The notes under the pieces: model-generated
What the model saw: the letters and a program-made list of their open reading frames with translations, nothing else
The model's database searches: none
What the model was told of the DNA's origin: nothing
IMG/VR virus record: IMGVR_UViG_3300009502_000048
Coordinates: 1 to 64,000 of that record
DNA: 64,000 bases
Strand: one strand, 5' to 3'
DNA from: a virus
In this document: positions 18,282 to 49,507 of the stretch, piece by piece
How the letters are laid out: every line of letters begins with the position of its first letter
Position numbering within the stretch: position 1 is the first letter of the stretch
Made by a program: the position numbers and the translations under genes

Positions 18282-19178
18282 ATGAAACAAGATGAAAATT
18301 TAAAAATATTTTTAATTGACCTAATAGATAAACAGAAATTTAGATTTTGTAGAACAATTAAAGAGAAATACATTGATATAGAAAGAGAAATAAAAGAAAA
18401 CACATCTTTTTTTAATAGTGAAGTATCTCTAGCAGAAAGAATATATTGCATATTAAATGATATTAAGAATATTACCGTATGTCCTATATGTGAGAAAAAG
18501 GTAGTATATAGGAATTATACACTTGGATACCGTAAGCATTGTTCATCCCGATGTTCACAATTGGATGAAAAAACAAAAGAAAAGTATAAAAAAACATATA
18601 ATGAAAAATATGGTGAAAATGTTGATTGTAACTTTAAATTGAAGGATTTTTACAAAAAACAAAAAGTTATATTAAAAGAACGATATGGGGTGGAAAATGT
18701 TTCACAAATTGAGAATGTTAAAAATACTAAAAGAATTACATTTCAAAAAAATCATGGTGATATACCACATCCATTATGGGGTAACACATGGTATGATTTT
18801 ATAACACCTTCTGGAATAAAATTTAAAATACAAGGATATGAAAGGTTTGCATTACCAATTCTTATAAATAAATATGGTGAATGTAATATCTTAATAGACT
18901 ACAAAAGTATAAAAAATAAAATAGGCGAGATAACATATGTTGAAAATGATAAAAAATACCGCTATTATCCAGATTTTTTTATCATTTCAGAAAATAAAAT
19001 AATAGAAGTAAAATCAAAATTCACATTGGAACAACATCTGGATAATTTAAAAAATAAAATGTGTGAATGTTTAAACCGTGGCTATAAATTTGAAATAATT
19101 ATATTTGATTATAAAGGAAATGATATTACACATGAACAGGACATTAAACGAATCCTTAAAAAAATTGGGGCCACCTGA
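18282..19178 (+). CDS. Homing endonuclease inserted in the CCA-enzyme gene
   Basis: 298 residues. Residues 66-90 hold a zinc ribbon (VCPICEKKV...HCSSRCSQ). The C-terminal nuclease core is RYYPDFFIISENKIIEVKSKF, a PD-(D/E)XK pattern seen in phage homing endonucleases. The 3' end runs past the start of the HD-domain gene in another frame. A strong AGGAGG ribosome site and own late promoter precede it. Confidence 0.8.
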   Translation: MKQDENLKIFLIDLIDKQKFRFCRTIKEKYIDIEREIKENTSFFNSEVSLAERIYCILNDIKNITVCPICEKKVVYRNYTLGYRKHCSSRCSQLDEKTKEKYKKTYNEKYGENVDCNFKLKDFYKKQKVILKERYGVENVSQIENVKNTKRITFQKNHGDIPHPLWGNTWYDFITPSGIKFKIQGYERFALPILINKYGECNILIDYKSIKNKIGEITYVENDKKYRYYPDFFIISENKIIEVKSKFTLEQHLDNLKNKMCECLNRGYKFEIIIFDYKGNDITHEQDIKRILKKIGAT

Positions 19179-19860
19179 ACCATATGATCCAAAAAACCCC
19201 GAACATAGTGATCCAACAAAATATGTATTATATCAAGGAACTGTATGGGATCATATGATTGCTGCGTTAAAAACAAATAAACTCGTTGATCCTATTGTAA
19301 ACCTTGCAATCCTCCTCCATGACTGTGCTAAGCCAGTCACAGCAACCATCAGAGATCATGGTGGCACGGCATACTTTGGTCATGCTGAAGAAGGAGTAAG
19401 GTTGGTAAATGATATTGCGGATAGATTGAAATTATCCAATGATGAACGAGAAAAATTGATATTTGCCGTTGGAAACCACATGAAATTTCATTTGATATTA
19501 GATATGAAACCTAGTAAGATTGCTAAGTTGGTATCTGATGACAATTGGGATGTATTGGTTGCTGTTGCTATGGCAGATAATTATTCAAGAGGAAAGGACT
19601 TCAAATATAATATTGATTTTGAACATATTGTTGATAGGGCAATTGAAGTAAAAGAAAAATGGGGCCAAAAAGCCATGAACAATGTTATAAAAGTCGTCAG
19701 CGGAGATCATATAATGGAAATAACTGGATTAAAACCATCAAAAATGGTCGGAAATATAATAAAAAGTGTTACTGATTTTGTAATAGATAACAATATCAAC
19801 CCATCAAACAAAACGGAAATGGATAATATAATTTTACAGGTTTTTAAAGAATTACAATAA
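19132..19860 (+). CDS. CCA-adding enzyme, HD-domain half
   Basis: Start chosen at ATG 19132 (AAAGGA upstream); ATG 19120 and TTG 19105 are alternatives. The conserved sequence resumes at GPPEPYDP, exactly where the N-terminal half stops. The HD phosphohydrolase-like domain shows LLHDCAKP (HD), YFGHAEEG and GNHMKFH. The first residues MNRTLNESLKK are not part of the family and happen to contain L-N-E. The two halves probably associate without splicing, as in genes-in-pieces NrdA of phage Aeh1. Confidence 0.75.
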   Translation: MNRTLNESLKKLGPPEPYDPKNPEHSDPTKYVLYQGTVWDHMIAALKTNKLVDPIVNLAILLHDCAKPVTATIRDHGGTAYFGHAEEGVRLVNDIADRLKLSNDEREKLIFAVGNHMKFHLILDMKPSKIAKLVSDDNWDVLVAVAMADNYSRGKDFKYNIDFEHIVDRAIEVKEKWGQKAMNNVIKVVSGDHIMEITGLKPSKMVGNIIKSVTDFVIDNNINPSNKTEMDNIILQVFKELQ

Positions 19861-20037
19861 ATGTATTTTTCTACACCAACTTTGAATTGTTGGTTCAGGT
19901 ATATTCATTTTTACAGATATTTTTTTATAGGAAATACCGTCTTTTCGTAATTCTAATTTTTGAATGGTTCTACCAATATAACATTTACCATTTACCACAT
20001 TAGTTGCTTTATATATTATTCCGAACGATTTACCCAT
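19852..20037 (-). pseudogene. Internally deleted GIY-YIG endonuclease remnant
   Basis: Start at 20037 behind GGAGTG. About 61 residues: a GIY-YIG start (GIIYKATNVVNGKCYIGRT) joined directly to the C-terminal helix-turn-helix (GISYKKISVKMNIPEPTIQSWC). The catalytic body and NUMOD3 repeats are missing. It may still bind DNA. The RNA-like element at 20050-20137 lies directly upstream. Confidence 0.7.
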
Positions 20038-20049
20038 GATATTCACTCC

Positions 20050-20137
20050 TATAAATAGATTGAGAAGGGACAGCAGCAATCACTCCGCTGTTTCCAGTAT
20101 GCTGAAACATCTGGATTACCTTCTATTACTATTTAGA
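20050..20137 (-). ncRNA. Three-way-junction RNA element, copy 1
   Basis: Read on the minus strand. An outer stem joins TCTAAATAG...GAAGG with CCTTC...CTATTTATA. Inside are hairpin P2 (TCCAG/CTGGA, bulged A, ATG/CAT) and hairpin P3 (ACAGC/GCTGT). It ends a few bases before the GGAGTG ribosome site of the endonuclease remnant. The same architecture recurs at 27781 and 54043 with compensatory changes. Function unknown. Confidence 0.7.
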
Positions 20138-23477: not shown

Positions 23478-26400
23478 TTAGAAGAATAATTTCAAACTTT
23501 CTTTTGCTTTGACATATAATAGGTCGGTTTTACCCAATACTTTTAATAACATTTCACATTTATTCAAAAATGTTTTTTCAATCTGTCTAGTATAATCTAC
23601 TTGTAACACCGAATCAAATTCCTTTGGCCATCTATTAAAGGCCATAGCATCAAATCCAAATTTGTTTTTCTTTACATAAAGAACCTTAACTTTTGCGTCT
23701 TCCATGATATCTTCATATTTTCCTTCTAATCCTAATATTTTCAAGAGAGCCCTATAATTAGCAACACCTTTTATTTGCATTGGTGTTCCTTTTACACTTT
23801 TACCATCAGGCCCAATATATTTTTTAGTATCATGAATACCAATGTTTGTTGATATAGCCTCTGGTGGCATACCTTGTAGTTCTTTTTTACACTTAGAAAT
23901 CATGGTGGACAATTCATTATCTGATGAACCTTTGAGTATCATACTCATAATATCTTTTAAAACTGGGCGAACAACCTCTGGTGTATCAGACCGTACAATT
24001 TCAAGACCTGTAGTCTTTATTTTATCTACCGGATTTCTTTCTTCATCAACTATCCAAGCAGAATATTTCTTCTTTTTCACAAATAATATAGACTTGGCAA
24101 TGATTTCCCGTTTGAATTTTATTCTAAAATCGGTTTCTGTCGAATTATAAACGGTTCGTTGCATTTCTCTATATGCCTTATCATTTACATAATCCTCTGT
24201 TACAACGGATATATTATGAATATGATTCATAATATATTCATCAGTTTTATTCTTCCACTCAACACCATATAAATCAAAAAGCCTACCAACATTAATAAAC
24301 AACGAATCTGTGTCCATATATAAAATTAAATCAACATCTTCACTAGGTTTTTTTGTAATGTCACGTTCCATATTATTCAATACATCTAATAATGCTTTTG
24401 ATGGTTTATTATACAATTGATTTACATATCGTTCAGATGCTTTGATTGTCTGCCTTCCACATGATACGATGGCTTCAGCAATGTTTGTATTGAAATAACG
24501 TGAGAATGGGACAGCCAAAATACCATAAGTTGAATTGAGAATAATTTTTAAAGCGTTTTGTAGACCTTGATACCTAGCAATTTTTTCTTTTGTTCGTTCA
24601 AAATCTTTTCCTTTCAATTCAGGTAACGATTTTTTCATTTTTATCATTTTTTTCTTTACTTCGACACGTTTATAGAACATAGATTTTTCAACGGTTGCTA
24701 TTACGCCGGGAACGGTTGTAGAGAACACTGAACCACAAGGAGCGACACATAGGAATTTCTTTTTGAGTGCTTCTTGAAATATTTCCAATTTTCTACCAGA
24801 AAAACGAACCTTGCCAGTATCTTTCAACATATCAAATTCAGGCAAATCCCTATTCTTCATATGACTAATCATTTGATCTTCTGTGAATCCTATGATACGA
24901 CCATAGTAAGTTTCATTTGACATGTTTAGTGTAACGATGGCAGTTGGATATGAACTGATGATATCAAGGTCAATAACCCATTTGTGTAATCCAGTCAAGG
25001 GCTCTTTGACAAATGCTGCAGGAAATCCCTCTTGAACACCACCATAAAATGTTGGAGCACATAATCCGTTTCTTCTGAAATATGTGATAAGAATGCCTTC
25101 AATTAGAGCAGTCTGTGTATGATAAAATTTCATCGGAGCTTTACATAACAAGGATAATGTTTGAATCAATTTGATATAACCAAGTTTTCCTTCTATTTGC
25201 CCAACACGATAAGCATCAATAATGTTATATTCAACATATAAATCCCAATTTTCATTATATAATTGTCTAAGGTCTTTATAGGCAGAGTAGTCCACCTTAC
25301 CTTTTTCTAATTCATGGTTTGATACATAATCTAATGTGTATCGTTCTAGTTTTGCCGGTGAATACCATTTATAAACATCAAGATAATCAAGAAGTGTTAC
25401 ACCAATTATATCAGCATTGAACTCACCATCTTTATTGATCCATGTTCTTACATTACTAATCGGTGATAAATTGTTGGCTACCTTACTATCCTCACCAAAT
25501 ATTCTCAATGTACGATTGATAAGATATTGTATATCAAAAGATATGCAATTATGAACACGGACACCACTCGTTATAAAATAATTACTACTTGTTTTAATAT
25601 CACCCATTTCAACAGTTTCATCTGTTTCTTTAATATCATCTATTTTTATATAATAACATTCATCAATTTTTTTAAATCTTATTTGTGATGCTTTTTGTGA
25701 TGATGTTCTAGTATTTGTATTATACCTCATATTAGACCATCTATATGGATGGTTTAAATATAGTTTTGTTTCATCATATTCAATAAATCTCATGGTATTC
25801 TTACTTCGTGTAACAAATATACCATTCCATAAACAAAGGTCGTATAGTTTATCAATACCATCGGATGTATAATCACATAGTCCCATCCCCACATCACTTT
25901 TACACCCATCACCATCCAACACACCTGATAAAAATATGTAAAATTGTTCTTTTGATAATCTACTCAAAAGAGTTAAATTCAATGTTTTCTCACCGGCTTC
26001 ATTATATATATAATCATAAACATCCTTGATTATAGAATGTTTTATATGGCGACTATATCCTTTTTTCCTATCACCACATATACTTGTTGTTACATAAGGT
26101 AATTGTTCTAATAATTCCGTATTTGATTGATATATTCTATACCCCTCACATTGTCGTGTCTTATCTCTCATTGATCCGTCTGTATAAATCAAACCGGCCA
26201 TATATAATAAATTATTATCAATATCAATATTATCATTTTTATTTAAATCGAAAGGAACTTGAACAAAACAGGATTTATCTAAAAAAGGTATATCACTAAC
26301 TTTCATATCCCCTTCATTTAGTATTTGTTTATTTTTACGATTTTCAGATAATTTTGTATACTTATTATTATCAATGTATTTTATAGGTATTACATGATCT

Positions 26401-27140
26401 GCTGATGTTTTCAAAATATGACCATTTGATAATTTTATTTCATTCACTTTTTTGAAAGATCGTGGATAAACAATATTAACCATATCACCACTTGGTAGTA
26501 TATCACCTTTTGATATATCAGATAATAATACAATTTCTTTTTCTTTATATATCGTATTAGTAATAGGAATACAATTCCAACCAGTTATAACATCAGGGGC
26601 ATATTTGTGCATAAATCCAAAGAATTGTTGTAATAATACTTCTTCATTCTTACAATGGATATAGGTCAGCCAAGGTTCTTTTTTATATTTACCATTATAT
26701 TCTTTGATACCAAAGGTTGTTGTTTTATTTTCCAACATATTATATACTGAAATAAGAACAACAGGGGCCAACGCATCCTCAGCTTTAGGAAAAACATCTT
26801 GAAAATCGACTTCAATATCTATTGAGTAAATCTTCAATTTAGGATTTTCTATTTCATCATCAGGAATCTCATGATATCGTTCAGCCAGATATTGAATTTC
26901 TGGTCTTAGATTATTTTCTTTGCAATTAAGGTCAGATTTTTGGTAAATAAAGTAATCATTATATGTATTAAAAGTCTTTTTGGATACTGTATTACCTTCT
27001 ATTGATTTAATAGTGCCGTTTTCATCATCTATGAACACATATGGTATCCATTTTAATTCATTATACTTATCTTTCCCATTTATTTGGCTCCATAAATGTA
27101 TGTTGTTAGTTCTACTATTATAATAAACATTCTTGAACAT
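23478..27140 (-). CDS. 43: Family B DNA polymerase with intein
   Basis: Start at 27140 (MFKNVYY), with AAAGGA nine bases upstream. Exo I is IYSIDIEVDF; Exo II is GWN-CISFDIQYL once the intein is removed; motif A is DLDIISSYP, motif B is LKIILNSTYG, and motif C is YMDTDSLF. Without the intein the protein is about 878 residues, near T4 gp43 (898). The intein splits the Exo II motif, so unspliced protein should lack both proofreading and correct folding. The 5' end overlaps the upstream GIY-YIG gene. Confidence 0.92.
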   Translation of the reverse strand: MFKNVYYNSRTNNIHLWSQINGKDKYNELKWIPYVFIDDENGTIKSIEGNTVSKKTFNTYNDYFIYQKSDLNCKENNLRPEIQYLAERYHEIPDDEIENPKLKIYSIDIEVDFQDVFPKAEDALAPVVLISVYNMLENKTTTFGIKEYNGKYKKEPWLTYIHCKNEEVLLQQFFGFMHKYAPDVITGWNCIPITNTIYKEKEIVLLSDISKGDILPSGDMVNIVYPRSFKKVNEIKLSNGHILKTSADHVIPIKYIDNNKYTKLSENRKNKQILNEGDMKVSDIPFLDKSCFVQVPFDLNKNDNIDIDNNLLYMAGLIYTDGSMRDKTRQCEGYRIYQSNTELLEQLPYVTTSICGDRKKGYSRHIKHSIIKDVYDYIYNEAGEKTLNLTLLSRLSKEQFYIFLSGVLDGDGCKSDVGMGLCDYTSDGIDKLYDLCLWNGIFVTRSKNTMRFIEYDETKLYLNHPYRWSNMRYNTNTRTSSQKASQIRFKKIDECYYIKIDDIKETDETVEMGDIKTSSNYFITSGVRVHNCISFDIQYLINRTLRIFGEDSKVANNLSPISNVRTWINKDGEFNADIIGVTLLDYLDVYKWYSPAKLERYTLDYVSNHELEKGKVDYSAYKDLRQLYNENWDLYVEYNIIDAYRVGQIEGKLGYIKLIQTLSLLCKAPMKFYHTQTALIEGILITYFRRNGLCAPTFYGGVQEGFPAAFVKEPLTGLHKWVIDLDIISSYPTAIVTLNMSNETYYGRIIGFTEDQMISHMKNRDLPEFDMLKDTGKVRFSGRKLEIFQEALKKKFLCVAPCGSVFSTTVPGVIATVEKSMFYKRVEVKKKMIKMKKSLPELKGKDFERTKEKIARYQGLQNALKIILNSTYGILAVPFSRYFNTNIAEAIVSCGRQTIKASERYVNQLYNKPSKALLDVLNNMERDITKKPSEDVDLILYMDTDSLFINVGRLFDLYGVEWKNKTDEYIMNHIHNISVVTEDYVNDKAYREMQRTVYNSTETDFRIKFKREIIAKSILFVKKKKYSAWIVDEERNPVDKIKTTGLEIVRSDTPEVVRPVLKDIMSMILKGSSDNELSTMISKCKKELQGMPPEAISTNIGIHDTKKYIGPDGKSVKGTPMQIKGVANYRALLKILGLEGKYEDIMEDAKVKVLYVKKNKFGFDAMAFNRWPKEFDSVLQVDYTRQIEKTFLNKCEMLLKVLGKTDLLYVKAKESLKLFF
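25548..26573 (-). other. Intein with LAGLIDADG endonuclease in DNA polymerase
   Basis: 342 residues between N192 and the Cys of CISFD. It begins Cys (CIPITNTIYKEKE), has block B TSADHVIPI, two LAGLIDADG blocks (LLYMAGLIYTDGSM and IFLSGVLDGDGCKSD), and ends VRVHN before the +1 Cys. All standard splicing residues are present, so it should be active. The site in Exo II differs from the common PolB intein sites in motifs A and C. Confidence 0.9.
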
Positions 27141-27768
27141 TATCCACATTCCTTTTTATTTTACTTTTTATATATTTTGACTTATTGTTATTACCTAACA
27201 TTGCATCACTCATACGTTTTTTAGTTTCTTCTGATTTTTTAATCCCCTTTCGGGCCTCACTTATTTTCTTTCTATGTTCTAAAGTATTTTTTCTACCCAT
27301 TGCACTTTCACTCATTTTTCTTTTAGACTCATCTGTATGTTGTTTTCCCGAAAAACTTGGTGTTCTTTTTTTGGCTCTTTCACTCATCTTTTTTCTTGTT
27401 TCATCAGAAGGATTTGATGATCCTTCACCACCTTCTGTAAAATTACATAAAGGGCCTTTATGTAAATCAACCCTGCCTATAGTTTGTATAATATGTTTCT
27501 CAAGATTGAATGATATTTCCTCTGATATTTGATCCATAATTTTTATTATTATAGGATCACAACCAGTTTCTAACTGTATCTTCTTAATTTTATTTAAAAT
27601 ATGATTATTACTATGATAACCGTCTTTTATATGATAATATAACCTATTATTACTACCCTTACCAACATAGAATGGTTCATAATCAAACGAATATTCATCA
27701 TAGATATAGGTGCCTGGCTTACGCGGATCAAGATATACATAAACATAAAATATTGGATTTACTTTCAT
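27118..27768 (-). CDS. GIY-YIG homing endonuclease with NUMOD3 repeats
   Basis: Start at 27768 (MKVNPIFYVYVYLDP), behind GAGGTG. The GIY-YIG domain is residues 4-95 (FYVYVYLDPRKPG...EPFYVGKGSNNR). The rest is four NUMOD3 DNA-binding repeats (DETRKKMSERAK, DESKRKMSESAMG, LEHRKKISEARKG, EETKKRMSDAMLG). The 3' end overlaps the DNA polymerase start. RNA element copy 2 sits immediately upstream. Confidence 0.88.
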   Translation of the reverse strand: MKVNPIFYVYVYLDPRKPGTYIYDEYSFDYEPFYVGKGSNNRLYYHIKDGYHSNNHILNKIKKIQLETGCDPIIIKIMDQISEEISFNLEKHIIQTIGRVDLHKGPLCNFTEGGEGSSNPSDETRKKMSERAKKRTPSFSGKQHTDESKRKMSESAMGRKNTLEHRKKISEARKGIKKSEETKKRMSDAMLGNNNKSKYIKSKIKRNVDNVQECLL

Positions 27769-27780
27769 TTGGTTCACCTC

Positions 27781-27867
27781 ATAAATAGATGTGGAAGGGA
27801 CAGCAGCAAACCTCACGCTGTTGATTGTGTGTTTCAGCACCAATCTTACCTTCTACATGTATTTAGA
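27781..27867 (-). ncRNA. Three-way-junction RNA element, copy 2
   Basis: Minus strand. Outer stem TCTAAATAC...GAAGG with CCTTC...CTATTTAT; P2 is GATTG/CAATC with bulged A and GTG/CAC; P3 is ACAGC/GCTGT with a GTGAGG loop. It abuts GAGGTG, the ribosome site of the GIY-YIG gene at 27768. Confidence 0.72.
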
Positions 27868-30298: not shown

Positions 30299-30597
30299 TT
30301 ATTCATCTCCTGTTCAATATATTTTTTAATTGTTTCGCCATGACATCGTTTCGGAGCACACCAACAAAACAAATTTAATTGATGATATGTTTTATATATT
30401 TCAATCAATCGTTGTAATTCATCTTTCAACATCAAAATATTTTCATCAAACCATTTTTCATACATATCACAAACCAAATCACGTTCACTTTCATTGTATA
30501 AAATGTATGGGTTGCCCAGTATTGATTTAGTTCTACATATTTTAACATCCCAAGGTTCTTTGGGCTTTTCTTTTGAAAGATTTTTGATTTTTATCAT
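30295..30597 (-). CDS. DUF4326 protein
   Basis: 100 residues. ICRTKSILGNPYIL, then a helical part with the YEKWFDENI motif, and the C-terminal LFCWCAPKRCHGETI, which match DUF4326. The Cys/His set could bind metal. Short overlaps with both neighbours (4 bp) indicate one transcript. Confidence 0.75.
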   Translation of the reverse strand: MIKIKNLSKEKPKEPWDVKICRTKSILGNPYILYNESERDLVCDMYEKWFDENILMLKDELQRLIEIYKTYHQLNLFCWCAPKRCHGETIKKYIEQEMNK

Positions 30598-31394
30598 TTT
30601 TTACACCAACCTTGTATTGTTCCATCAGGAATATTCATTATTTCTGATATCTTTTTAAAAACCATGCCCTGTTTTCGTAAAGAAACAGATTGTAATATTA
30701 TTTCATCCGAATATTTTCGATGAGCTTTTCCCATTTTTTCCCTTGTTTCTTTTGATGGCCTTATACCAGTATGGCTTTCGCCTATTTTTTGTCTGGTTTT
30801 TTCTGAATGAATTCTTCCTTTACCAGCACTACTTATTTTTTCCCTTGTTTCTTTTGAAAATTTTCTGTTTTTTGCTCGTTCACGCATTTTTTCTCTTGTT
30901 TCTTCTTTTATATCGTGTTTTTTTCGCATTTTTTCTTTTGTTTCTTCTGTAAATATTTGAAATTTTCTTTTTTCTTTTATTTTGTATTTTGTTTCTTCTG
31001 ATACATAATGTCCTTTAAGTTTTTCACTAATCTTCTTTTTTGTTTCATTTGAACATATGGCGCCAGGGCATCCGCCACCAGCATCATTTTTATTAAACAG
31101 AGGCCCTGTTTCTTTGTTTAATCTGCCTATTGTTTTTACCATCTTTCGTTCTAGTGCTAGTGATACATTTTCAAACAAATCTTTTTTATAAAAAATAATA
31201 TTTGGGGTTTTTATTTCTTGTACCATAAATAGAAAATCTTTATTCGTGCCGTGCCCTTTTAAATGAACATACGCCCTGTCACCATTACCTTTACCCACAT
31301 AAAATGGTTCATATTCAAATTCATATTCGCCATAAACATAGTTGCCTGGTTTACGGGGATCAAGATATACATAAACATAAAAATTATCTGACAT
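30594..31394 (-). CDS. GIY-YIG homing endonuclease with NUMOD3 repeats
   Basis: Start at 31394 (MSDNFYVYVYLDP). GIY-YIG domain at residues 4-95 (EPFYVGKGNGDRAYVH), about six NUMOD3 repeats (EETKEKMRKKH, KETREKISSAGKG), and a C-terminal helix-turn-helix (GMVFKKISEIMNIPDGTIQGWC). It lacks the RNA element found before the related genes but has its own late promoter. Confidence 0.87.
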   Translation of the reverse strand: MSDNFYVYVYLDPRKPGNYVYGEYEFEYEPFYVGKGNGDRAYVHLKGHGTNKDFLFMVQEIKTPNIIFYKKDLFENVSLALERKMVKTIGRLNKETGPLFNKNDAGGGCPGAICSNETKKKISEKLKGHYVSEETKYKIKEKRKFQIFTEETKEKMRKKHDIKEETREKMRERAKNRKFSKETREKISSAGKGRIHSEKTRQKIGESHTGIRPSKETREKMGKAHRKYSDEIILQSVSLRKQGMVFKKISEIMNIPDGTIQGWCKK

Positions 31395-31419
31395 TATACA
31401 CTCCCTCAATTCTAGTATT

Positions 31420-32162: not shown

Positions 32163-32588
32163 TTATCTTCTTCTCACGTTTCCTCTTGCCCCTGATTGTT
32201 GCCCTCTGTTCCGTGCAATCGGATCGGCCACAACTTCTGCCATTTTTCTTGTATCATTAGATATTGCCGCATCATTCATCCATTGTTCTTGCTCACAACT
32301 ATCATACATTTTTAGGTTACGGGCATCGGTATAAAATTTATCAACAACACCAACACGACCACCTAACCGATTCTTTACTATCTTATAAAATAATTCACTT
32401 TCATATATTGCCTTATCTTCGCCTGAACCAAATATGGCAACAAAGTCGGCGGTTGCCGCTACACCAATACTATTTTTGGTCAATATACCATTGGCATAAA
32501 ATAAGTGGTTATTTGAAACTTCAATATCCATACATTCTTGCTGGCCCAATTCTTCTATTGAAACTATTTCATCATCATACTGTATCAT
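32163..32588 (-). CDS. 41: Split intein C part plus C-terminal third of DnaB-type helicase
   Basis: 141 residues. Residues 1-39 are the intein C part: IVSIEELGQQECMDIEVSNNHLFYANGILTKN, with block F and the terminal Asn. The +1 residue is Ser. Residues 40-141 complete the helicase (SIGVAATADFVAIFG, then the KNRLGGRVG arginine-finger region). The intein part closely resembles the gp41-1 type split intein. Trans-splicing with the product of 33846-35219 would give a helicase of about 468 residues, near T4 gp41 (475). Confidence 0.88.
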   Translation of the reverse strand: MIQYDDEIVSIEELGQQECMDIEVSNNHLFYANGILTKNSIGVAATADFVAIFGSGEDKAIYESELFYKIVKNRLGGRVGVVDKFYTDARNLKMYDSCEQEQWMNDAAISNDTRKMAEVVADPIARNRGQQSGARGNVRRR

Positions 32589-33808
32589 ATACTTTCCTCT
32601 ATAAAATTCATTACATTTTTCATTTCTTGTTCTCTGTCTTTATATGACCATATAACATAATATTTAAATCCAAGTTTTTCAGCAATATCTTTTCTCTTAG
32701 TATCAATATCATTTTGTGTTTTATATGATATTCCATATGGCGACACCCAACTGTTCCTTTGTTCTTCCGTCAATATATCCGCTGGATGCCATCTATCACC
32801 ATGATATTCTATTATTATTTTTTTTGGTCTTATAGTAAAATCATATCTAAAATAGTATAATGTTGAATGAGCAAGGAAAAATTCTTTAGACCCTTCTATT
32901 CCTACATAAATATCATCTGGTGAAATTTTATATTTTTCTATCAACCATGTCCTCAATGGATTGAAATATTCTAGCGATTGTTTTGATGCTTTACAAACAA
33001 ATCCATCATTTTTTGTATGTGTTTTCATCTGTGTTATTTGTCTTTTATAACACATTTCTTCCCATTTTTCAACCCATTTCTCACCATATTTTTTCTCAAA
33101 CATATCCTTAGATTGGATTGATTTTACTGTTATTTCTTTTTGTTTTTGTATAGCTGTTTCATAATCAAAACCACGATATAACCAATAGTCTAGCGTATTT
33201 GGTATGTTTATTCTTGGATGATTATGTTTGACTTTTTGTGAATTTTTATTCATTGATGTATTATGGTTTTTAGCTAGATATATAGCATCATCAATAGAAT
33301 ACCCCTTTTTAGTCCAATATTCTTTACACATAAGGGATCTTTCTTTTTGTGGTATAGGGCCTTCTCTTTCTACTTTCTTTGTCTGTGATATAGATAATTT
33401 TTTCTTATATTCTATAATCTGCTCTTTGCCATCTATTTCACCAAACTTATCTGTGTATCGCTTATTGATGTTTAGTTCACCAAGAAAATGATTATACTTC
33501 TCGGTTCCTTCTGACATACCAAATTGAAGAATAAACATATTTAAATTTCTTTTTTTTCTTTCATTACCAGGCATTGAAGATAATATATGAAAATTTTTCT
33601 TGATATCTATCACATCAGCGTATTTTATAAGTCTTGCCAGTGTAATAACATTTGTTACATAAAGACTATCCCATGTTAAAATTATATCATTTATAATTTC
33701 AACCTTTTCTTCGTCTATCTCAATATCACCAATTTCTCTTTTCCATACAACACTACTAAATAAATAGTTCTTTTTACTTTCCTTATCCATTGAAGATAAT
33801 TTTGACAT
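32585..33808 (-). CDS. Free-standing homing endonuclease between helicase halves
   Basis: 407 residues. The C-terminal nuclease domain is YYFRYDFTIRPKKIIIEYHGDRWHP, then IDTKRKDIAEKLGFKYYVIW, the VSR-like EDxHD fold of the I-Bth0305I family. The same family occupies fractured genes described with split inteins. It overlaps the intein C-part gene by ATGA, has a GGAGG ribosome site and its own late promoter. Confidence 0.82.
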   Translation of the reverse strand: MSKLSSMDKESKKNYLFSSVVWKREIGDIEIDEEKVEIINDIILTWDSLYVTNVITLARLIKYADVIDIKKNFHILSSMPGNERKKRNLNMFILQFGMSEGTEKYNHFLGELNINKRYTDKFGEIDGKEQIIEYKKKLSISQTKKVEREGPIPQKERSLMCKEYWTKKGYSIDDAIYLAKNHNTSMNKNSQKVKHNHPRINIPNTLDYWLYRGFDYETAIQKQKEITVKSIQSKDMFEKKYGEKWVEKWEEMCYKRQITQMKTHTKNDGFVCKASKQSLEYFNPLRTWLIEKYKISPDDIYVGIEGSKEFFLAHSTLYYFRYDFTIRPKKIIIEYHGDRWHPADILTEEQRNSWVSPYGISYKTQNDIDTKRKDIAEKLGFKYYVIWSYKDREQEMKNVMNFIEESI

Positions 33809-33842
33809 TGGTTCCCTCCAACAACTGAATTCGTTATAATTG

Positions 33843-33850
33843 TATTTATA
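33843..33850 (-). promoter_or_regulatory. T4-type late promoter
   Basis: TATAAATA on the minus strand, overlapping the stop codon of the helicase N part and 35 bases upstream of the endonuclease start. It would also carry late transcription of the helicase C part. Confidence 0.7.
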
Positions 33851-35219
33851 AAGAATTCAAAAAATTACCAACTTTTAATCCAGTTTTTATATTTTTGAAC
33901 CCATCAGATGTAGGAAACTTATGGTCTGCTGAACATATAATTTCTTTACCACTTTTTGTTTTTATTTTATACATTTTTTTAATTTTTTTATTGAAAACTC
34001 TGTTTACAGATACATTGCCATCGCTGCCTTTGATAATATCACCTTTTTTGAGATTACATATCTTTTCATTTTTATATGTTTTTCCATCCCACATCAACAC
34101 ATCGGTATCTAATGACAAACATTCTGAAATGAACGTGAAATCAACTTCATCAAATGTAATGTTCATTCCTTCTCTGTTCAACTGGCTTACTGATACAACC
34201 GGCATCAAAAACTCAAACGATAATGCTCGTAGTTCTTCGGCTATAGATTTTACATCAGAATACATTTCACCTTTTGTTCTATATGCCGGTTTCATAAGAT
34301 TCAAATAATCACATATGAAAATATCTGGTTTGATGCCACGAATCAACAATTCTCTAATATATTTTCGATAATCATCAACTGTGGCCTTGCCGGTAGGATA
34401 TTGTTTGATATATAAATTTCCGCGTGTTGTTGATGCCTTCAAAACATCCAATGAACGAACCAATTTAGATTGTAATGGACGTTCTCTATACATTTTATTG
34501 ATATCAAGTAACGATAGAATTGAGTCAAATCTTTGTGCAAAGGCTTCTTCTGACATTTCAAGTGAGGCTAATATGACATTTTTTCCGGCCATAACCTCTC
34601 TAGCCGCCATGTTAGCTAAGAATGTTGATTTGAACCCATGAATACGTGCCACCATTACAGACAATGTATATGGGGGAAATCCGCCTGATATATATTCGTC
34701 TAATACAGGGAATCCTGATGGTATACGTATTTCACTTCTTGTGAAAATCTTTGTAAGTCGTTCATCAAGTGTGCCAAAATAATCAAGACCTAAATCAATT
34801 TTTAGGTCTTTACTTATGGCATCTTCTACCAATCGCCGTATCATTCCAATATCTTCTTTCTTATTGATAACATCGACTGATGATAATATTGCTTTTTTGA
34901 CAGCTTTTTCTTTCAAATATTCGTTAGTGCTGGTGAATAAGAAATCATAATTATTGATGTAGTCAAAATCCGTTGCATCAATTTCACGAAAAAAATCTGC
35001 AACATCAGTTGATCCTTCTTTATCAAATTCACTGATGATTGCTACTCTAGGTGGGATATTCTTATATTCTTGAAAATGTTTGATACTGTAATCATATATT
35101 TTTGACGCTGTTTGATTATCAAAATACTCTTTGTCGAATACAGACGATAGTGTTGCTATGTATTGTGGGTCTACCATACACCCTTTGATGATAAGATGTT
35201 CTAATAAAACAGATTCCAT
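33846..35219 (-). CDS. 41: DnaB-type helicase N part plus split intein N part
   Basis: 457 residues. Residues 1-366 are a gp41-like replicative helicase: SGFPVLDEYISGGFPP, an atypical Walker A (ARIHGFKST, first Gly replaced), ILASLEMSEEAFAQR, IFICDYLNLM (Walker B) and VVSVSQLNREG. Residues 367-457 are the intein N part: Cys start (CLSLDTDVLMWDG), block A/B (GKEIICSADHKFPT) and the end KVGNFLNSL. The break lies after FTFISE, before the conserved SIG segment. Confidence 0.9.
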   Translation of the reverse strand: MESVLLEHLIIKGCMVDPQYIATLSSVFDKEYFDNQTASKIYDYSIKHFQEYKNIPPRVAIISEFDKEGSTDVADFFREIDATDFDYINNYDFLFTSTNEYLKEKAVKKAILSSVDVINKKEDIGMIRRLVEDAISKDLKIDLGLDYFGTLDERLTKIFTRSEIRIPSGFPVLDEYISGGFPPYTLSVMVARIHGFKSTFLANMAAREVMAGKNVILASLEMSEEAFAQRFDSILSLLDINKMYRERPLQSKLVRSLDVLKASTTRGNLYIKQYPTGKATVDDYRKYIRELLIRGIKPDIFICDYLNLMKPAYRTKGEMYSDVKSIAEELRALSFEFLMPVVSVSQLNREGMNITFDEVDFTFISECLSLDTDVLMWDGKTYKNEKICNLKKGDIIKGSDGNVSVNRVFNKKIKKMYKIKTKSGKEIICSADHKFPTSDGFKNIKTGLKVGNFLNSL

Positions 35220-36228: not shown

Positions 36229-36304
36229 TGGTGCCATAGGTGGGAATAGAACCCACGTTGACGGCGTTTTAGAGGCGCCCGCTTAACCACTCAGCTACTA
36301 CGGC
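36229..36304 (-). tRNA. Suppressor tRNA, anticodon CUA (reads UAG)
   Basis: Cloverleaf on the minus strand: acceptor GCCGTAG/CTATGGC (one G-U), D arm GCT/AGC with the loop AGTGGTTA, anticodon stem GGCG/CGCC, loop CTCTAAA giving anticodon CTA, variable loop of six, T arm GTGGG/CCCAC, and an encoded CCA end. The base 31-39 pair is C-A. The charging amino acid cannot be decided from sequence. Amber stops are used normally by several genes in this window (5303, 8284, 9037, 13867). Confidence 0.82.
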
Positions 36305-39257: not shown

Positions 39258-40025
39258 TTATTTAAATAATGTTATTCCTATTTCGCTCTCTACGTCAATA
39301 AGTAGGCATTCACTGCCTATCCAGACTTCTACATCATCCCCAAAATATTTATCAGGGGCCATAAGTCTAAATTCATGTTCTTTAGGATCTAATAGATTAC
39401 TAAGAAAATCAATGAGTTTTGTTTTGCCTTTATTATATATTCTCAAATAATCAATATCATAATCGTCATTGTAAATTAGATCACCATTATCTCTAATTTT
39501 ATCAATATCACTACATGCAATTTTAAATTCTTTGTAATTTACATCCCAAAATTCATCATCTATTTCTACTCGTCCTTGTTGTAGAAATTCATGTAAGTCA
39601 CTATTAAAATTATTCATATTATAACTAAATGATTGAAATGAATACCATATATCATTAGCTGGGCATACAGCTATTTTAGCACTATTTGTTGGGATAACAT
39701 AATACGGATGTTTACGATGTGCTCGTCTTTCGGCATTATTAATATCGGTTGTACAGATAATAGATTTGTTTCTTTTAGGATATGATGACCATGATGGTAA
39801 ATTACTCAAAAGCAAGTTGTAATAGTTATGGTCAGCATATGGACTTGTTCTTTCATCAAAATCTGATGGGGTTATAGTATAGTAATTTTCTGTATAGTCA
39901 TCAACACCACGATATATTGGTTGCCCTTTCAATGCTTTTGAACAATATTTTTCAAGATAATGTTGGGCAAACTGATATGTTACTTCATTTCTTCTGGCTT
40001 CATTGATAAAAGTTTTTAATCTCAT
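39258..40025 (-). CDS. ADP-ribosyltransferase-like packaged protein, paralogue A1
   Basis: 255 residues. MRLKTFINEA fits the targeting motif (I-N-E). Possible transferase triad: Arg in PIYRG (residue 39), CTTD in YPKRNKSIICTTD (about 91-94, the STS position), and Glu in DDVEVW (about 233). T4 Alt is a capsid-borne ADP-ribosyltransferase with the same targeting logic. It is close to A2, A5 and A6, and shares YNLLLSNLP..S.YPKRNKS with A2. Confidence 0.6.
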   Translation of the reverse strand: MRLKTFINEARRNEVTYQFAQHYLEKYCSKALKGQPIYRGVDDYTENYYTITPSDFDERTSPYADHNYYNLLLSNLPSWSSYPKRNKSIICTTDINNAERRAHRKHPYYVIPTNSAKIAVCPANDIWYSFQSFSYNMNNFNSDLHEFLQQGRVEIDDEFWDVNYKEFKIACSDIDKIRDNGDLIYNDDYDIDYLRIYNKGKTKLIDFLSNLLDPKEHEFRLMAPDKYFGDDVEVWIGSECLLIDVESEIGITLFK

Positions 40026-40792
40026 AAGTTTTCTTCCAACCTAAAACTTTCCCCTAATTTACTAGACGTATCAATTAAAATACATGGGCTATCTGTCCAT
40101 ACTTCATTATCGCCGCCCATATTTTCGCCAACATTTACTAATTTGAATCCATTTTTTTCAGGGTCTAATATGTCATTCAAATATTTGATAAATGGTATAT
40201 CACCTTCAATATACTCGCTAAATATGTTATAATCATCAGGATCAAGATTTTTTATTTTATCAAGTTCCAAACAATCTTTTACAAAAGAAGAAAAATCCAC
40301 TTGACTTCGTTTTCTAAATATACCATTATCACGAAATAAACTATATATGGTATCATTTAAATCTGACAGGTCATACCACCCCTCAAATGCATCTCTAAAT
40401 CCATCCCAAATATCATCTCTAGGGCATACCCCTATTTTAGCACCATCGACAGGCAAAACATAATGGGCGATTCCTCTGCCACGATTTGAAGCATTTTCAT
40501 AATCAGTCGTACATATAACTGACTTATTTCTTTTTGGATATTGTGACCATGCTGGCAGATTACTCAATAATAGATTGTAATAATTTTCATCAGCAAACGG
40601 ACTTTTTCTCTCACCAAAATTCTTAGGATTTGTAAGGAAATATTCACCATCAATATGCCTATTCCCTCTATATATTGGATACCTTGTTATACTTGATAAT
40701 GCTTTTTTACAATGTCTTTCAATATAATGTTGGGCAACTGAATAACTAATATGTTCTGACCTATTTTCATTGATAAATGTTTTTAATCTCAT
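40022..40792 (-). CDS. ADP-ribosyltransferase-like packaged protein, paralogue A2
   Basis: 256 residues. MRLKTFINEN start, identical in the first nine residues to A1. PIYRG near residue 41, YPKRNKSVICTTD near 95, VDGAKIGVCPRDDIW, and GGDNEVW with the putative Glu near residue 235. Overlaps A1 by 4 bp. Sequence drift is stronger in the C-terminal half. Confidence 0.6.
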   Translation of the reverse strand: MRLKTFINENRSEHISYSVAQHYIERHCKKALSSITRYPIYRGNRHIDGEYFLTNPKNFGERKSPFADENYYNLLLSNLPAWSQYPKRNKSVICTTDYENASNRGRGIAHYVLPVDGAKIGVCPRDDIWDGFRDAFEGWYDLSDLNDTIYSLFRDNGIFRKRSQVDFSSFVKDCLELDKIKNLDPDDYNIFSEYIEGDIPFIKYLNDILDPEKNGFKLVNVGENMGGDNEVWTDSPCILIDTSSKLGESFRLEENL

Positions 40793-41466
40793 ATATTTAA
40801 CATCCTTTCAACATCATCTTGTGAATTATTATCTATAACATAATAATAATCACATTTTATAGATACTTCATTACCAGACCTTATTGCCGCTGGTAGGTTT
40901 GTATTTTTATATAAAAGGGGCACTCGTTTTATTTGTTTTTCAACCTCTTTATGCCAATCATCAATCACGGATTGTTCATATTGTTCTTTTGTCATACCTA
41001 ATTCAACAAGTTCTTCTGGATTGATGTCAGTCAATTTCCATTTTAGTGTTGCTGGATGAATATCATATGTTGATCTATTATCTTTATTTTCTATTGCTGA
41101 TGAATATAAATCCATTATATCAGGCGACCATAAGAATGAAAATCCATTTTTAGGAAATACAATATACATATGATCACCATAAATATCAATCTCTGTCAGG
41201 TCGCTCGTACAAAACATTGCTTCTGACCGTGGTTTCCATCCAAACAATTTATAAAATTCTTCATCATATCGTATTGATAATTTAGAATCCATATTCAATG
41301 TTTTTCTATCTTTACGGGGATATATTTGAGCAAAATCATTAAAAATATGATTAGACGCTCTATATAAAAAACTGCCTGTTTTTGAATATGCCTTACATAT
41401 TTCAGAACATTTTTTTTGAATATCTGAAAATTTATTATCAAATATAATATTTTGTTTTAATCTCAT
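40789..41466 (-). CDS. ADP-ribosyltransferase-like protein, paralogue A3
   Basis: 225 residues. The N terminus MRLKQNIIFD keeps MRL but lacks the acidic cleavage residue. FLYRAS, RKDRKTLN, SEAMFCTSD and the late SGNEVSIKCDYYYVI fit the R / S-T / E layout of a second subtype shared with A4, which is common in phages (RKP..T...LF..RFGW..RSE..F.T). Overlaps A2 by 4 bp. Confidence 0.55.
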   Translation of the reverse strand: MRLKQNIIFDNKFSDIQKKCSEICKAYSKTGSFLYRASNHIFNDFAQIYPRKDRKTLNMDSKLSIRYDEEFYKLFGWKPRSEAMFCTSDLTEIDIYGDHMYIVFPKNGFSFLWSPDIMDLYSSAIENKDNRSTYDIHPATLKWKLTDINPEELVELGMTKEQYEQSVIDDWHKEVEKQIKRVPLLYKNTNLPAAIRSGNEVSIKCDYYYVIDNNSQDDVERMLNI

Positions 41467-42335
41467 TATCCAAATCCTAGATCTTTTATCGTAAAACCGC
41501 TGTAATATCCATTAGAACCATTAGATGGAAGTAATATTCCATAATAATAATTACATTTGAACATCATTTCATTTTTATTACCACCTTTTAAATAGGTATG
41601 TAAATTCCTATCTTGGTATGTTTCGACCACATTTTCTAATGAAGGATCACGTGAGTCCATCCATTCTTCTTCGGATACAACAGGCACCCATAAATATGTT
41701 TTACTTATTTGCAAATCATCTTCATCTACATATATATCTATTTTCATTCCATTATAACTATATGTAGCATAATCAGAATTAGCATATGGAATATCATATT
41801 TTTCAGCAAACTTCTCATTTGTTTCCTGATCAATCCAATCACCAATATATGAAAAGGGATCATATTCATCATATAATGTTTTATTTTCAAAATAATCTGA
41901 ATATAGATCTTCATAATTAGGCGACCAAACATATTTATAACCATTTACTGGGAAAAATACATATATTTTTCCATATGATTTTGCTACCGTTGAAGAAGAT
42001 GAAACAAAAACTCCTTCTGATCTAGGACGCCATCCAAATATATCCTCAAAAAGATCATCAATACTTCTTTGATCAGATGGATCTGTGTCTTTAGGTTTTC
42101 TATCATTTCTAGGAATTATTTTATATACATTATCAGAAATAGTTTCCCTTCTTGATGTTTTTGTTCCTCTATATAAAAGTTTGTTAGTCAAAGCATATTC
42201 TTTTACTATATCACTACATTCATGTTTTATTTTACTAATAACCTCTCTGTCCAATGAAAATTCAACATCACCATGTTTTACATTTATTTTCATATCTGGA
42301 AATAATTCTTGTTGCATATGTTTATTCAATCTCAT
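41466..42335 (-). CDS. ADP-ribosyltransferase-like protein, paralogue A4
   Basis: Start at 42335 (MRLNKHMQQELFPD), overlapping the A5 stop. About 289 residues. LLYRGTKTSRR, IIPRNDRKPKD, RSEGVFVSSSSTVAKSYG (a clear S-T-S block) and NKNEMMFKC (putative Glu). Same subtype as A3 but longer. M-Q-Q-E at the N terminus is an imperfect cleavage site. Confidence 0.58.
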   Translation of the reverse strand: MRLNKHMQQELFPDMKINVKHGDVEFSLDREVISKIKHECSDIVKEYALTNKLLYRGTKTSRRETISDNVYKIIPRNDRKPKDTDPSDQRSIDDLFEDIFGWRPRSEGVFVSSSSTVAKSYGKIYVFFPVNGYKYVWSPNYEDLYSDYFENKTLYDEYDPFSYIGDWIDQETNEKFAEKYDIPYANSDYATYSYNGMKIDIYVDEDDLQISKTYLWVPVVSEEEWMDSRDPSLENVVETYQDRNLHTYLKGGNKNEMMFKCNYYYGILLPSNGSNGYYSGFTIKDLGFG

Positions 42336-43081
42336 AATAGATTTGCCCCTACTTTTACTAATACACAAGGATCTGAAATCCAAATTTCACGATTTGGTGG
42401 TATGTTATTTCCAGCCCTTACTAATGAAAAATCACAAGCATCTGGATCCATAAGATAATCAATAAAACCATAAAATGTTTTTCCACTACCCATATATGAT
42501 ACAAAAAAGGGCATAGCATACTTATATCTAAAAGCCTTGATATCCATTTCTTTTATAATTAACTCTTTATTTTTATCTATTAGTTTGAATATTTTTACCA
42601 TATTAGGAAAATCATAATCTGCTCTAGTAACACATATATAATCTGATTCAACCACTATGCCGGTAATTTCTGAAATATCTTCAAATGAATATTGTAATCT
42701 TTTAGATCCCCAAATGTCCATATATGGGCATACCCCAACCTTTCCACCATTTATTGGGTATACATTATAAACATCCCCGAATCCATCGGAATATTCAGAA
42801 TCGGTTGAACATATAATAGATTTACTTCTTTTTGGATATTTTGACCATTTTGATGAATTATCCATCATCAATGTATAATAATTAGATGTACTGGCTGACC
42901 TTCTAAGATCTTTAGATTTTGATGGATCAATATAAGCAAAATCACCATATCCACCAACACCACGATATATTTGAACTTTACTAACAAAGGCATCAGCATG
43001 GTCAGTTCGTAATAATTCACGGGCTTCTTCTTTGGTAATTGGTTTGCCTCTTTGTTTTTCTACGTATTCATTTAATCTCAT
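42332..43081 (-). CDS. ADP-ribosyltransferase-like packaged protein, paralogue A5
   Basis: 249 residues. MRLNEYVEKQ start. IYRGVGGYG near residue 39, YPKRSKSIICSTD near 90, GGKVGVCPYMDIWG, and PPNREIWISDPC with the putative Glu. Same subtype as A1, A2 and A6. First of the contiguous five-gene array. Confidence 0.6.
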   Translation of the reverse strand: MRLNEYVEKQRGKPITKEEARELLRTDHADAFVSKVQIYRGVGGYGDFAYIDPSKSKDLRRSASTSNYYTLMMDNSSKWSKYPKRSKSIICSTDSEYSDGFGDVYNVYPINGGKVGVCPYMDIWGSKRLQYSFEDISEITGIVVESDYICVTRADYDFPNMVKIFKLIDKNKELIIKEMDIKAFRYKYAMPFFVSYMGSGKTFYGFIDYLMDPDACDFSLVRAGNNIPPNREIWISDPCVLVKVGANLL

Positions 43082-48225: not shown

Positions 48226-48435
48226 TTAAACAACCTCCCTCAATATAAATCCATTATATCCTCTATATCTCAACATTTTAAATTCATCAGATATTTCCTT
48301 GATTGCTTGTTTTATCTCTTTGAATATTGTAGGTATAAGATTAGTCAATGATTCAGATACATTATAGTTATCTAAAAAATGAATATAATCTTCATAGGTT
48401 ATACTTTCTTCTTGAACATAAGTATTCAATCTCAT
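48226..48435 (-). CDS. Small putative packaged protein
   Basis: 69 residues starting MRLNTYVQEES (V-Q-E site). The rest is a single helical domain (FKEIKQAIKEISDEF). Three bases from the nuclease gene. Confidence 0.6.
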   Translation of the reverse strand: MRLNTYVQEESITYEDYIHFLDNYNVSESLTNLIPTIFKEIKQAIKEISDEFKMLRYRGYNGFILREVV

Positions 48436-48445
48436 TGACGTTTTC

Positions 48446-48706
48446 CTATTTTGTATCAGTTGGAGTAGTTGTTTTTGCCGATGTTAATGCCGTTTCTATT
48501 ACTGATTTACCAGCCCATAGACCAAAAGATATACCAAAAAAACTGATTATAAATCCTTGTAGTTCTTTCAGATTTTGAATCATTTCTTTTGAACTGAAAC
48601 ATATAGCAATTGTAAGCATACAAAATATCATAACTGTTATGACTAAATTGACAAATGATCCTTTGATTGATTTTTTTTCATCATCCCAAAATATATTACT
48701 ATTCAT
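48446..48706 (-). CDS. Putative holin-like membrane protein
   Basis: About 86 residues from MNSNIFWDD (48706; 48715 also possible). Two membrane segments: LVITVMIFCMLTIAICF and ISFFGISFGLWAGKSVI, with short polar ends. Layout fits a class II holin or phage holin-accessory protein. Confidence 0.58.
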   Translation of the reverse strand: MNSNIFWDDEKKSIKGSFVNLVITVMIFCMLTIAICFSSKEMIQNLKELQGFIISFFGISFGLWAGKSVIETALTSAKTTTPTDTK

Positions 48707-48711
48707 GTTTA

Positions 48712-49032
48712 TCACCTCTTGATATTATCTATTTTATTTTTGACATCAATTCGTTCTTGTTCTATTTTTTGAAAATCCTCTTTTAATTCAACATCTTTAG
48801 GGTTCTTTTTTGTAAGTGCCTTATATTGATAATATTGGTCTGTTAGATTTATATATCTCTGTTCCAATCTATCTTTTACCATATCACTTTGAAATGATTT
48901 TAATGTTTGAACAAGTTGTATTTCAGATTTCTTCAAGTCATCTGATGTGGCATATCGGCTATCAATAGCTAATACGCCTGTTATCAAGGATATACCTAAT
49001 ACAATACTTCCTATAATTGTTTTTATTTCCAT
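48712..49032 (-). CDS. Membrane-anchored coiled-coil protein
   Basis: 106 residues. N-terminal membrane anchor (TIIGSIVLGISLITGVLAI) followed by a charged coiled coil. Shape of an inner-membrane spanin subunit or similar lysis protein. Adjacent to two more coiled-coil membrane genes. Confidence 0.55.
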   Translation of the reverse strand: MEIKTIIGSIVLGISLITGVLAIDSRYATSDDLKKSEIQLVQTLKSFQSDMVKDRLEQRYINLTDQYYQYKALTKKNPKDVELKEDFQKIEQERIDVKNKIDNIKR

Positions 49033-49057
49033 TATACACCTCTCACATTCAAAAGTA

Positions 49058-49507
49058 TTACAACAATAATACTAATACTGCGCCTGCAAGTATACCTATA
49101 CCAATACCACCAACAGCAATAAACACTTTATCCCATATATTGCCTTTGTCTTTTTCATATACTTTGATCTTATCTTCATATACTTTCTTTTGATTTTCAA
49201 GTTCCTTTGCTGATAAGTCTAATTGGTCTTGTTTTAACTTTACTTGTTCTTTTAGAATAATATTTTGTTCCATCAATAAAGTGTTTTGATCCACTAATTG
49301 ACTATTCGCCTTTTCAATCAAAACCACCTGACGTTCATATAAACTAGACCTTTCCAATTCAACAACCATTTTTTTAGCATCAGCAATTGGAATAACAATA
49401 TCTTCTGCAAACGATATGAGTGGTGTACATAATATGAATATACTACTTAACAGTATACCCAAGGGTTTTAAGCCTTGCTTTAATTTCTTTAACATCTTTA
49501 GGTTCAT
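49058..49507 (-). CDS. Secreted coiled-coil protein with C-terminal membrane segment
   Basis: 149 residues. A signal-like segment (LLSSIFILCTPLISFA) followed by a long coiled coil (residues 45-115) and a C-terminal membrane segment (FIAVGGIGIGILAGAVLVLLL). This resembles a single-molecule spanin, but no proper lipobox is visible (L before Cys), so the outer-membrane anchor is unproven. Overlaps the next gene by 65 bp. Confidence 0.55.
   Translation of the reverse strand: MNLKMLKKLKQGLKPLGILLSSIFILCTPLISFAEDIVIPIADAKKMVVELERSSLYERQVVLIEKANSQLVDQNTLLMEQNIILKEQVKLKQDQLDLSAKELENQKKVYEDKIKVYEKDKGNIWDKVFIAVGGIGIGILAGAVLVLLL

What the first reader, a model, noticed from the sequence alone, without database searches (positions are those of the whole stretch)
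32163..35219. Fractured helicase gene with a split intein and an endonuclease gene in between
The DnaB-type helicase is encoded in two genes. The first ends in an intein N part, beginning at Cys after FTFISE; the second begins with an intein C part ending in Asn before Ser. Between them is a VSR-like homing endonuclease with its own late promoter. Established: such an arrangement (gp41-1 type split inteins with an I-Bth0305I-family endonuclease) is known from metagenomic phage sequences. Seeing it complete within one genome, with both flanks and promoters, is rare. The intein halves look fully active.
Basis: partly seen in the sequence, partly recalled or inferred. Interest (0 to 1): 0.85.

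Follow-up and report, generated by a model that had tools for sequence, protein, structure and literature searches.

The report
Mobile split intein breaks helicase gene
A virus of bacteria carries its DNA-unwinding enzyme gene in two pieces, each ending in half of a self-splicing protein tag, with a DNA-cutting gene between them; this is a new example of a known arrangement, and relatives with the gene unbroken show exactly where the insert went in.

Summary
On the minus strand of a 64,375-bp linear phage record, a gp41/DnaB-type helicase is encoded as an N half (366 residues + 91-residue intein N) and a C half (39-residue intein C + 102 residues), 468 residues if spliced, with a 407-residue endonuclease between. 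The closest solved intein is gp41-1. The endonuclease profile matches Vsr (E 5e-4); its modelled catalytic domain matches Vsr and, more weakly, I-Bth0305I. About two dozen relatives have the helicase unbroken, fused exactly at the predicted splice point (E|S).

Corrections. The site is not the gp41-1 site (RSGY|SSD) but lies 12-14 residues downstream. The penultimate intein residue is Lys, not His. The arrangement is not rare. Shigella phage ESh36 carries it at the same site, the only one of 554 records matching that gene to cover the insert, implying recent mobility. One relative has its helicase in three pieces. The late-promoter motif is real and conserved; its function is untested.

Best explanation: a trans-splicing fractured gene whose free-standing EDxHD/Vsr-fold endonuclease drives homing into the conserved site. 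Splicing and cleavage are inferred, not shown. New member of a known kind (Dassa et al. 2009).

The parts
34122..35219 (-). Helicase N-extein (366 residues), gp41/DnaB type, ending ...VDFTFISE
   Evidence: DnaB_C E 4.5e-22; phrog_19 E 1.9e-60; best PDB match of the joined exteins is the DnaB-like replicative helicase 8dtp, E 3.3e-36
33849..34121 (-). Intein N part (91 residues, Cys1; block B ...CSADH)
   Evidence: NCBIfam intein_Nterm above cut-off; 76% identical to L005, 57% to L041, 47% to ESh36
33846..33848 (-). Stop codon TAA of the N half, lying inside the TATAAATA motif
   Evidence: sequence; same overlap in L005
33843..33850 (-). TATAAATA, T4-type late-promoter-like motif, 42 nt upstream of the endonuclease start
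   Evidence: also present upstream of the endonuclease in L005 (-36) and L063 (-66)
33814..33819 (-). Shine-Dalgarno-like GGAGGG of the endonuclease gene
   Evidence: sequence
32585..33808 (-). Endonuclease gene (407 residues)
   Evidence: 59% identical to L005's endonuclease over full length; profile match to Vsr
32588..32983 (-). Vsr/EDxHD-like catalytic domain (about residues 276-407; E309, D323, H341 invariant in 41 aligned sequences)
   Evidence: alignment A9; Vsr 1odg/1vsr/1cw0 E about 6e-4, 3r3p E 0.07; model pLDDT 86.5; Foldseek 1cw0 prob 1.00, 3r3p prob 0.92
32472..32588 (-). Intein C part (39 residues, ...LFYANGILTKN); its ATG overlaps the endonuclease TGA (ATGA)
   Evidence: NCBIfam intein_Cterm above cut-off; 74% identical to L005; overlap conserved in L005
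32163..32471 (-). Helicase C-extein (102 residues), begins SIGVAATADF
   Evidence: fused directly to the N-extein in the empty-site relatives, e.g. L011 4456/4457

Best explanation
This is a fractured gene. Two separate polypeptides, helicase-N/intein-N and intein-C/helicase-C, associate through the split intein, which cuts itself out and ligates Glu366 to Ser (+1), giving one 468-residue replicative helicase. The gene between the halves encodes a free-standing homing endonuclease (Vsr fold, EDxHD superfamily). In a mixed infection it would cut the uninterrupted helicase gene of a rival phage at or near the E|S codons; repair from the occupied copy moves the whole cassette (intein N - endonuclease - intein C). 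The insert destroys the target in its own genome, and splicing keeps the essential helicase working. The endonuclease probably has a late promoter of its own, and translation of the C half is probably coupled to it by the ATGA overlap. Shown here: anatomy, splice boundary, empty and occupied alleles, intein family, nuclease fold. Inferred: splicing, cleavage, homing, promoter function, coupling.
For: Intein halves recognised above curated cut-offs, closest solved relative gp41-1. About two dozen relatives, 43-65% identical over the N-extein, carry the helicase joined exactly at E|S. The occupied window and L005 are interleaved with empty L036 and L011 on the helicase tree (L036+L005+L011 exclude the window at 99/97), so the element comes and goes. 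Inteins are much closer than their host proteins between distant phages: window-L041 extein 27.5%, intein N 57%, intein C 74%. ESh36, a Tequatrovirus, holds a 1,553-bp insert at the same site; of 554 records matching that gene it is the only one covering at least 80% of the query, and the best-ranked others match the two flanks only, at about 97% identity in two pieces. ESh36 also shows AGTGCCGGA for TCTGCCGGT right at the junction, as co-conversion would leave. Nearly all endonuclease relatives lie between intein N-like and C-like halves of other genes, apparently topoisomerase, ribonucleotide reductase, terminase, Clp-type and SbcC-type ATPases (gene names read from the sequences, not from a family search). 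The nuclease domain matches Vsr and, more weakly, I-Bth0305I by profile and by fold.
Against: No experiment. The penultimate intein residue is Lys rather than His (also in L005, L041, L063 and ESh36, so it seems tolerated; Npu DnaE, which lacks it too, splices well, from memory). The intein tree supports a single E|S group only weakly (70/80), so one origin of all E|S inteins is not shown. L041 has the split intein at this site with no endonuclease. No cleavage site can be predicted. ESh36's record is marked UNVERIFIED. The fold match is by probability; Foldseek E-values are 0.008-0.07.
Confidence: 0.88

Rival explanations
1. Mobility is over. The halves still trans-splice, but the endonuclease is a passenger kept because the C half's translation depends on it.
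For: ATGA overlap of endonuclease stop and intein-C start in window and L005; L041 keeps the split intein without an endonuclease; apparent remnant of an endonuclease at the other site of L005.
Against: Full-length ORF with E309, D323 and H341 intact, these positions being invariant in 41 sequences; 59% conserved over full length with L005; ESh36 shows the same cassette type moved recently.
Confidence: 0.2
2. The halves are not ligated: the intein is dead, and the helicase works, if at all, as a non-covalent two-chain enzyme, as reported for the split NrdA of phage Aeh1.
For: Split replication genes that work without splicing exist in T4-like phages (PMC2988022); penultimate His replaced by Lys.
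Against: All other splicing residues kept; both intein halves conserved at 74-76% with L005, more than the exteins (66%), which is not expected of dead sequence; boundaries exact to the residue.
Confidence: 0.07
3. Assembly artefact or pseudogene: the helicase is really uninterrupted, or a second intact copy does the work.
For: The record is a linear fragment, so a second copy is not excluded.
Against: Same architecture at this site in two other contigs, L005 and L006; open frames throughout; one DnaB_C gene in this record, in the 189-kb relative and in ESh36.
Confidence: 0.03

Closest known systems
gp41-1 split intein of metagenomic cyanophage-like gp41 (PDB 6qaz/6riz)
   Same: Same intein family (E 1.5e-25), about the same split position, same host protein family, two genes with an endonuclease gene between them in most copies.
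   Different: Insertion point E|S here, RSGY|SSD in gp41-1-like copies; endonuclease here Vsr/EDxHD, in the gp41-1-site copies sampled GIY-YIG, HNH or none; last intein residues LTKN instead of LTHN.
Fractured genes with split inteins and a new endonuclease family (Dassa et al. 2009, PMC2677866; not held, known from memory and citations)
   Same: Arrangement: N half - endonuclease - C half, essential replication gene, Vsr-like nuclease.
   Different: An assembled 64-kb phage record here; I could not read the paper to check whether this exact insertion site is listed.
I-Bth0305I (EDxHD homing endonuclease, PDB 3r3p)
   Same: Catalytic domain fold and motif (profile E 0.07, Foldseek prob 0.92); long multi-module DNA-binding part expected.
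   Different: I-Bth0305I is a group I intron enzyme; here the gene is free-standing within a split-intein locus. Vsr is the closer hit.
gp41 locus of Shigella phage ESh36 (ON528746)
   Same: Same E|S site, split intein of the same family, endonuclease matching the same profile (E 1.5e-12).
   Different: Host helicase only 28% identical; endonuclease shorter and far diverged; C half has an N-terminal extension.
PolB locus of Pseudomonas phage vB_PaeM_MIJ3 (PMC6892783)
   Same: Split intein with an endonuclease gene between two halves of a replication gene in an isolated phage.
   Different: DNA polymerase, HNH endonuclease.

Membership tests
Split intein (gp41-1 family) | Separate N and C halves, each over the intein domain cut-offs | tested here: met
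   intein_Nterm 37.1 bits (cut-off 24.5), intein_Cterm 24.7 (15.6)
Split intein (gp41-1 family) | Nearest characterised relative is gp41-1 | tested here: met
   6qaz E 1.5e-25, next non-gp41-1 chain E 3e-8
Split intein (gp41-1 family) | Same insertion site as gp41-1 | tested here: not met
   RSGY|SSD in the gp41-1-like L049 and its kin; FISE|SIG here
Split intein (gp41-1 family) | Catalytic residues Cys1, block B His, terminal Asn, +1 Ser | tested here: met
   alignments; penultimate residue is Lys, not His
Split intein (gp41-1 family) | Protein trans-splicing activity | not testable with these tools
   needs co-expression
Fractured gene (Dassa-type) | Essential gene broken at one point, halves plus intein halves, endonuclease gene between | tested here: met
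   uninterrupted homologues at the same point
EDxHD / Vsr-fold homing endonuclease | Catalytic domain related to Vsr and I-Bth0305I | tested here: met
   Profile of 41 sequences: Vsr E 5.5e-4, 3r3p E 0.07; Foldseek 1cw0 prob 1.00, 3r3p prob 0.92, E 0.008-0.07
EDxHD / Vsr-fold homing endonuclease | Conserved acidic/His catalytic residues | tested here: met
   E309, D323, H341 invariant in 41 sequences; E334 and K372 at least 90%
EDxHD / Vsr-fold homing endonuclease | Pfam family membership above cut-off | tested here: not met
   Only sub-threshold or weak hits: MTES_1575, DUF559, Vsr
EDxHD / Vsr-fold homing endonuclease | Site-specific cleavage of the intein-free allele | not testable with these tools
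   needs protein and DNA
T4-type late promoter upstream of the endonuclease | TATAAATA close upstream on the coding strand, conserved | tested here: met
   window -42, L005 -36, L063 -66; absent in ESh36 and in most other relatives
T4-type late promoter upstream of the endonuclease | Transcription start in late infection | not testable with these tools
   needs RNA mapping

The most novel reading that the evidence does not exclude
The cassette times the helicase: because the C half is read from the transcript of the late endonuclease promoter and its start codon overlaps the endonuclease stop, full-length helicase is made mainly when the endonuclease is expressed, so protein splicing acts as a temporal switch on replication and ties the phage to the endonuclease.
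Probability: 0.1. Interest if true: 0.65.

Novelty: new member of a known kind. Interest (0 to 1): 0.4.

Why it matters
Fractured genes were described from metagenomic fragments, and I know of no direct demonstration that one homes. Here occupied and empty alleles are placed in one phage clade, and an isolated T4-like phage (ESh36) carries the same type of cassette in an otherwise standard gene 41, so homing of a split-intein cassette could be tested by an ordinary cross against T4. The site-specific intein (LTKN|S) is also a candidate orthogonal split intein for protein ligation.

Tried and rejected
Single-sequence scans of IMG/VR with the C half and the endonuclease found nothing; alignment-based scans did. 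The full-length endonuclease model from 3 sequences was poor (pLDDT 54) and its fold search was meaningless, so it was replaced by the catalytic domain with 41 sequences. A single-sequence PDB search of the endonuclease gave only chance hits. Identity with the bacterial DnaB intein site (RESG|SIEQ, from memory) was considered and rejected: the ungapped alignment to 2r6a puts E|S two residues upstream. A shared +1 codon (AGT) as a mark of one origin was considered: it holds for window, L005, L041 and ESh36 but not L063 (TCA), and AGT also occurs in empty alleles. An RNA hairpin hiding the endonuclease start, as in T4 I-TevI, gave z about -1.7 in both window and L005: suggestive only. Dassa 2009 and Taylor 2011 are not held.

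Full report
What is there. The record holding the window is a linear virus record of 64,375 bp. On the minus strand three reading frames follow each other: 33846-35219 (457 aa), 32585-33808 (407 aa) and 32163-32588 (141 aa). The first is a gp41/DnaB-type helicase (DnaB_C E 4.5e-22; phrog_19 E 1.9e-60) that runs after ...FTFISE into a 91-residue intein N part; the third starts with a 39-residue intein C part followed by SIGVAATADF.... NCBIfam's intein N and C models both pass their cut-offs, and the joined halves are closest to gp41-1 among solved structures (E 1.5e-25).

The splice point is confirmed by nature. A scan of IMG/VR with the helicase core gave 27 loci. Two of them (L010 and L032, the contigs of L005 and L006) carry the same insertion. 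In the others the N-extein runs into the C-extein without a gap at exactly E|S, for instance L011 4456/4457 and L036 6507/6508; in L034 the local alignment stops short of the junction. Some of these contigs are near-duplicates. They are the empty alleles. On a tree of spliced helicases the window is outside (L036 empty, (L005 occupied, L011 empty)), with 99/97 support for that group of three, so occupied and empty alleles are mixed within one clade.

The intein moves between phages. Comparing window and L041, the host proteins are 27.5% identical but the intein halves 57% and 74%; window and L005 are 66% against 76% and 74%. Five lineages hold a gp41-1-family split intein at this site: window, L005/L006, L041 (no endonuclease gene, a gap of about 60 nt), L063 and ESh36. 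All five end in LTKN|S; copies at the gp41-1 site (RSGY|SSD or RDGY/RNGY variants; L042, L044, L047, L049, L050, L051, L052) end in LTHN|S. L049 is nearly gp41-1 itself. So 'gp41-1 type' is right for the intein family and wrong for the site, which lies 12-14 residues further on. By alignment to 2r6a the E|S point lies two residues before the bacterial DnaB intein site (that site is from memory).

A recent arrival. Shigella phage ESh36 (Tequatrovirus; record marked UNVERIFIED) has a 1,553-bp insert at E|S. A search with 2.6 kb around it found 554 phage records matching at 80-100% identity; only ESh36 covers at least 80% of the query, and the best-ranked others (the rows listed) align in two pieces covering 40%, that is, without the insert. 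In three relatives examined in detail the join is exact, and the first nine bases to the right differ at two to four places (AGTGCCGGA against TCTGCCGGT or TCTGCTGGT), which fits a short co-conversion tract; the left side shows no comparable cluster. This is one case and is not proof.

The endonuclease. Alone it has no database family above cut-off. A 41-member alignment of its C-terminal domain hits the three Vsr structures at E about 6e-4 and I-Bth0305I at E 0.07; the model (pLDDT 86.5) returns Vsr first (probability 1.00, E 0.008) and I-Bth0305I sixth (0.92, E 0.065). E309, D323 and H341 are invariant. In IMG/VR nearly all its relatives sit between intein N-like and C-like halves of other genes, apparently topoisomerase II, ribonucleotide reductase, terminase, Clp-type and SbcC-type ATPases and gp41 (the gene names are my reading of the sequences). 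Vibrio phage vB_VmeM-32 has a relative at the Walker A site of gp41.

Expression. TATAAATA lies 42 nt before the endonuclease start with the stop codon of the N half inside it; L005 has the same overlap. L063 has the motif at -66; of 33 endonuclease genes examined (32 plus the window) six carry it within 150 nt against about 0.8 expected. In the window four of the seven genes I count as homing-endonuclease genes (one of them, 19852-20079, a weak call) have the motif within 110 nt upstream against three of 89 other called genes; the gene list is a greedy ORF selection and the distance limit was chosen after seeing the data, so the p of 3e-4 is indicative only. The intein-C ATG overlaps the endonuclease TGA in both window and L005. 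T4 homing endonucleases with late promoters are established (PMC2988022).

A stranger relative. In L005/L006 the helicase is in three pieces: a second intein at the Walker A motif (HGFK|C ... HN|S) is split early, between blocks A and B, with what looks like an endonuclease remnant between, followed by the E|S cassette. An uninterrupted (cis) intein at the same Walker A point is present in L122, a contig of a Candidatus Izimaplasma MAG. A working L005 helicase would need two trans-splicing reactions. In the window this second site is intact.

Verdict. The arrangement is real and its parts are coherent; splicing, cleavage and homing remain inferences from anatomy and comparison. It is a new member of the fractured-gene class, at an insertion site different from that of gp41-1; whether the 2009 paper already lists this site I could not check.

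Noticed in passing
window 23478-27149 (-): DNA polymerase gene (1223 aa) carries a full in-frame intein with two LAGLIDADG-like motifs (AGLIYTDGS, SGVLDGDGC), extein ...VITGWN | C...VHN | CISFDIQYL: a second intein in the same replisome.
   Followed up: partly
L005 6635-10448 and L006 (same coordinates): Helicase gene in three pieces with two different split inteins; the first is split unusually early, between blocks A and B, with an apparent endonuclease remnant between the pieces.
   Followed up: partly
L004 712-2679 and 3014-6089 (Vibrio phage vB_VmeM-32): Two neighbouring fractured genes in one isolated phage: uvsX with a SegG-like GIY-YIG gene between intein halves, and gp41 broken at Walker A with a Vsr-like endonuclease.
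   Followed up: partly
window 36229-36304 (-): tRNA with predicted anticodon CUA (called tRNA-Pyl by ARAGORN; Rfam tRNA 52 bits), a possible amber suppressor. TAG still ends 7 of 69 called genes of at least 100 aa, so recoding is not evident.
   Followed up: partly
window 5584-9037, 17387-18220, 39258-43081, 48226-51245: About a dozen proteins start with M(x)RL(K/N)x(Y/F)(I/L)xE-like motifs, resembling the T4 capsid-targeting sequence (from memory); possibly a large set of internal head proteins.
   Followed up: no
window 27118-27843, 30594-31409, 53176-54030, 54681-55211, 18282-19178: Several other homing-endonuclease-type genes (GIY-YIG/LEM-3-like, some with NUMOD3, and a DUF7487/phrog_3339 one); three have TATAAATA 26-100 nt upstream.
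   Followed up: partly
window 34623-34649 (-): The helicase's Walker A is unusual (ARIHGFKST instead of GxxxxGKS/T), shared by L005 and L122.
   Followed up: no
L122 3026-4258: Directly downstream of a helicase that is uninterrupted at E|S lies a free-standing gene with zinc-ribbon-like repeats and a Vsr-like C-terminal motif (IAIEYQGNYWH); a possible partner for collaborative homing.
   Followed up: no
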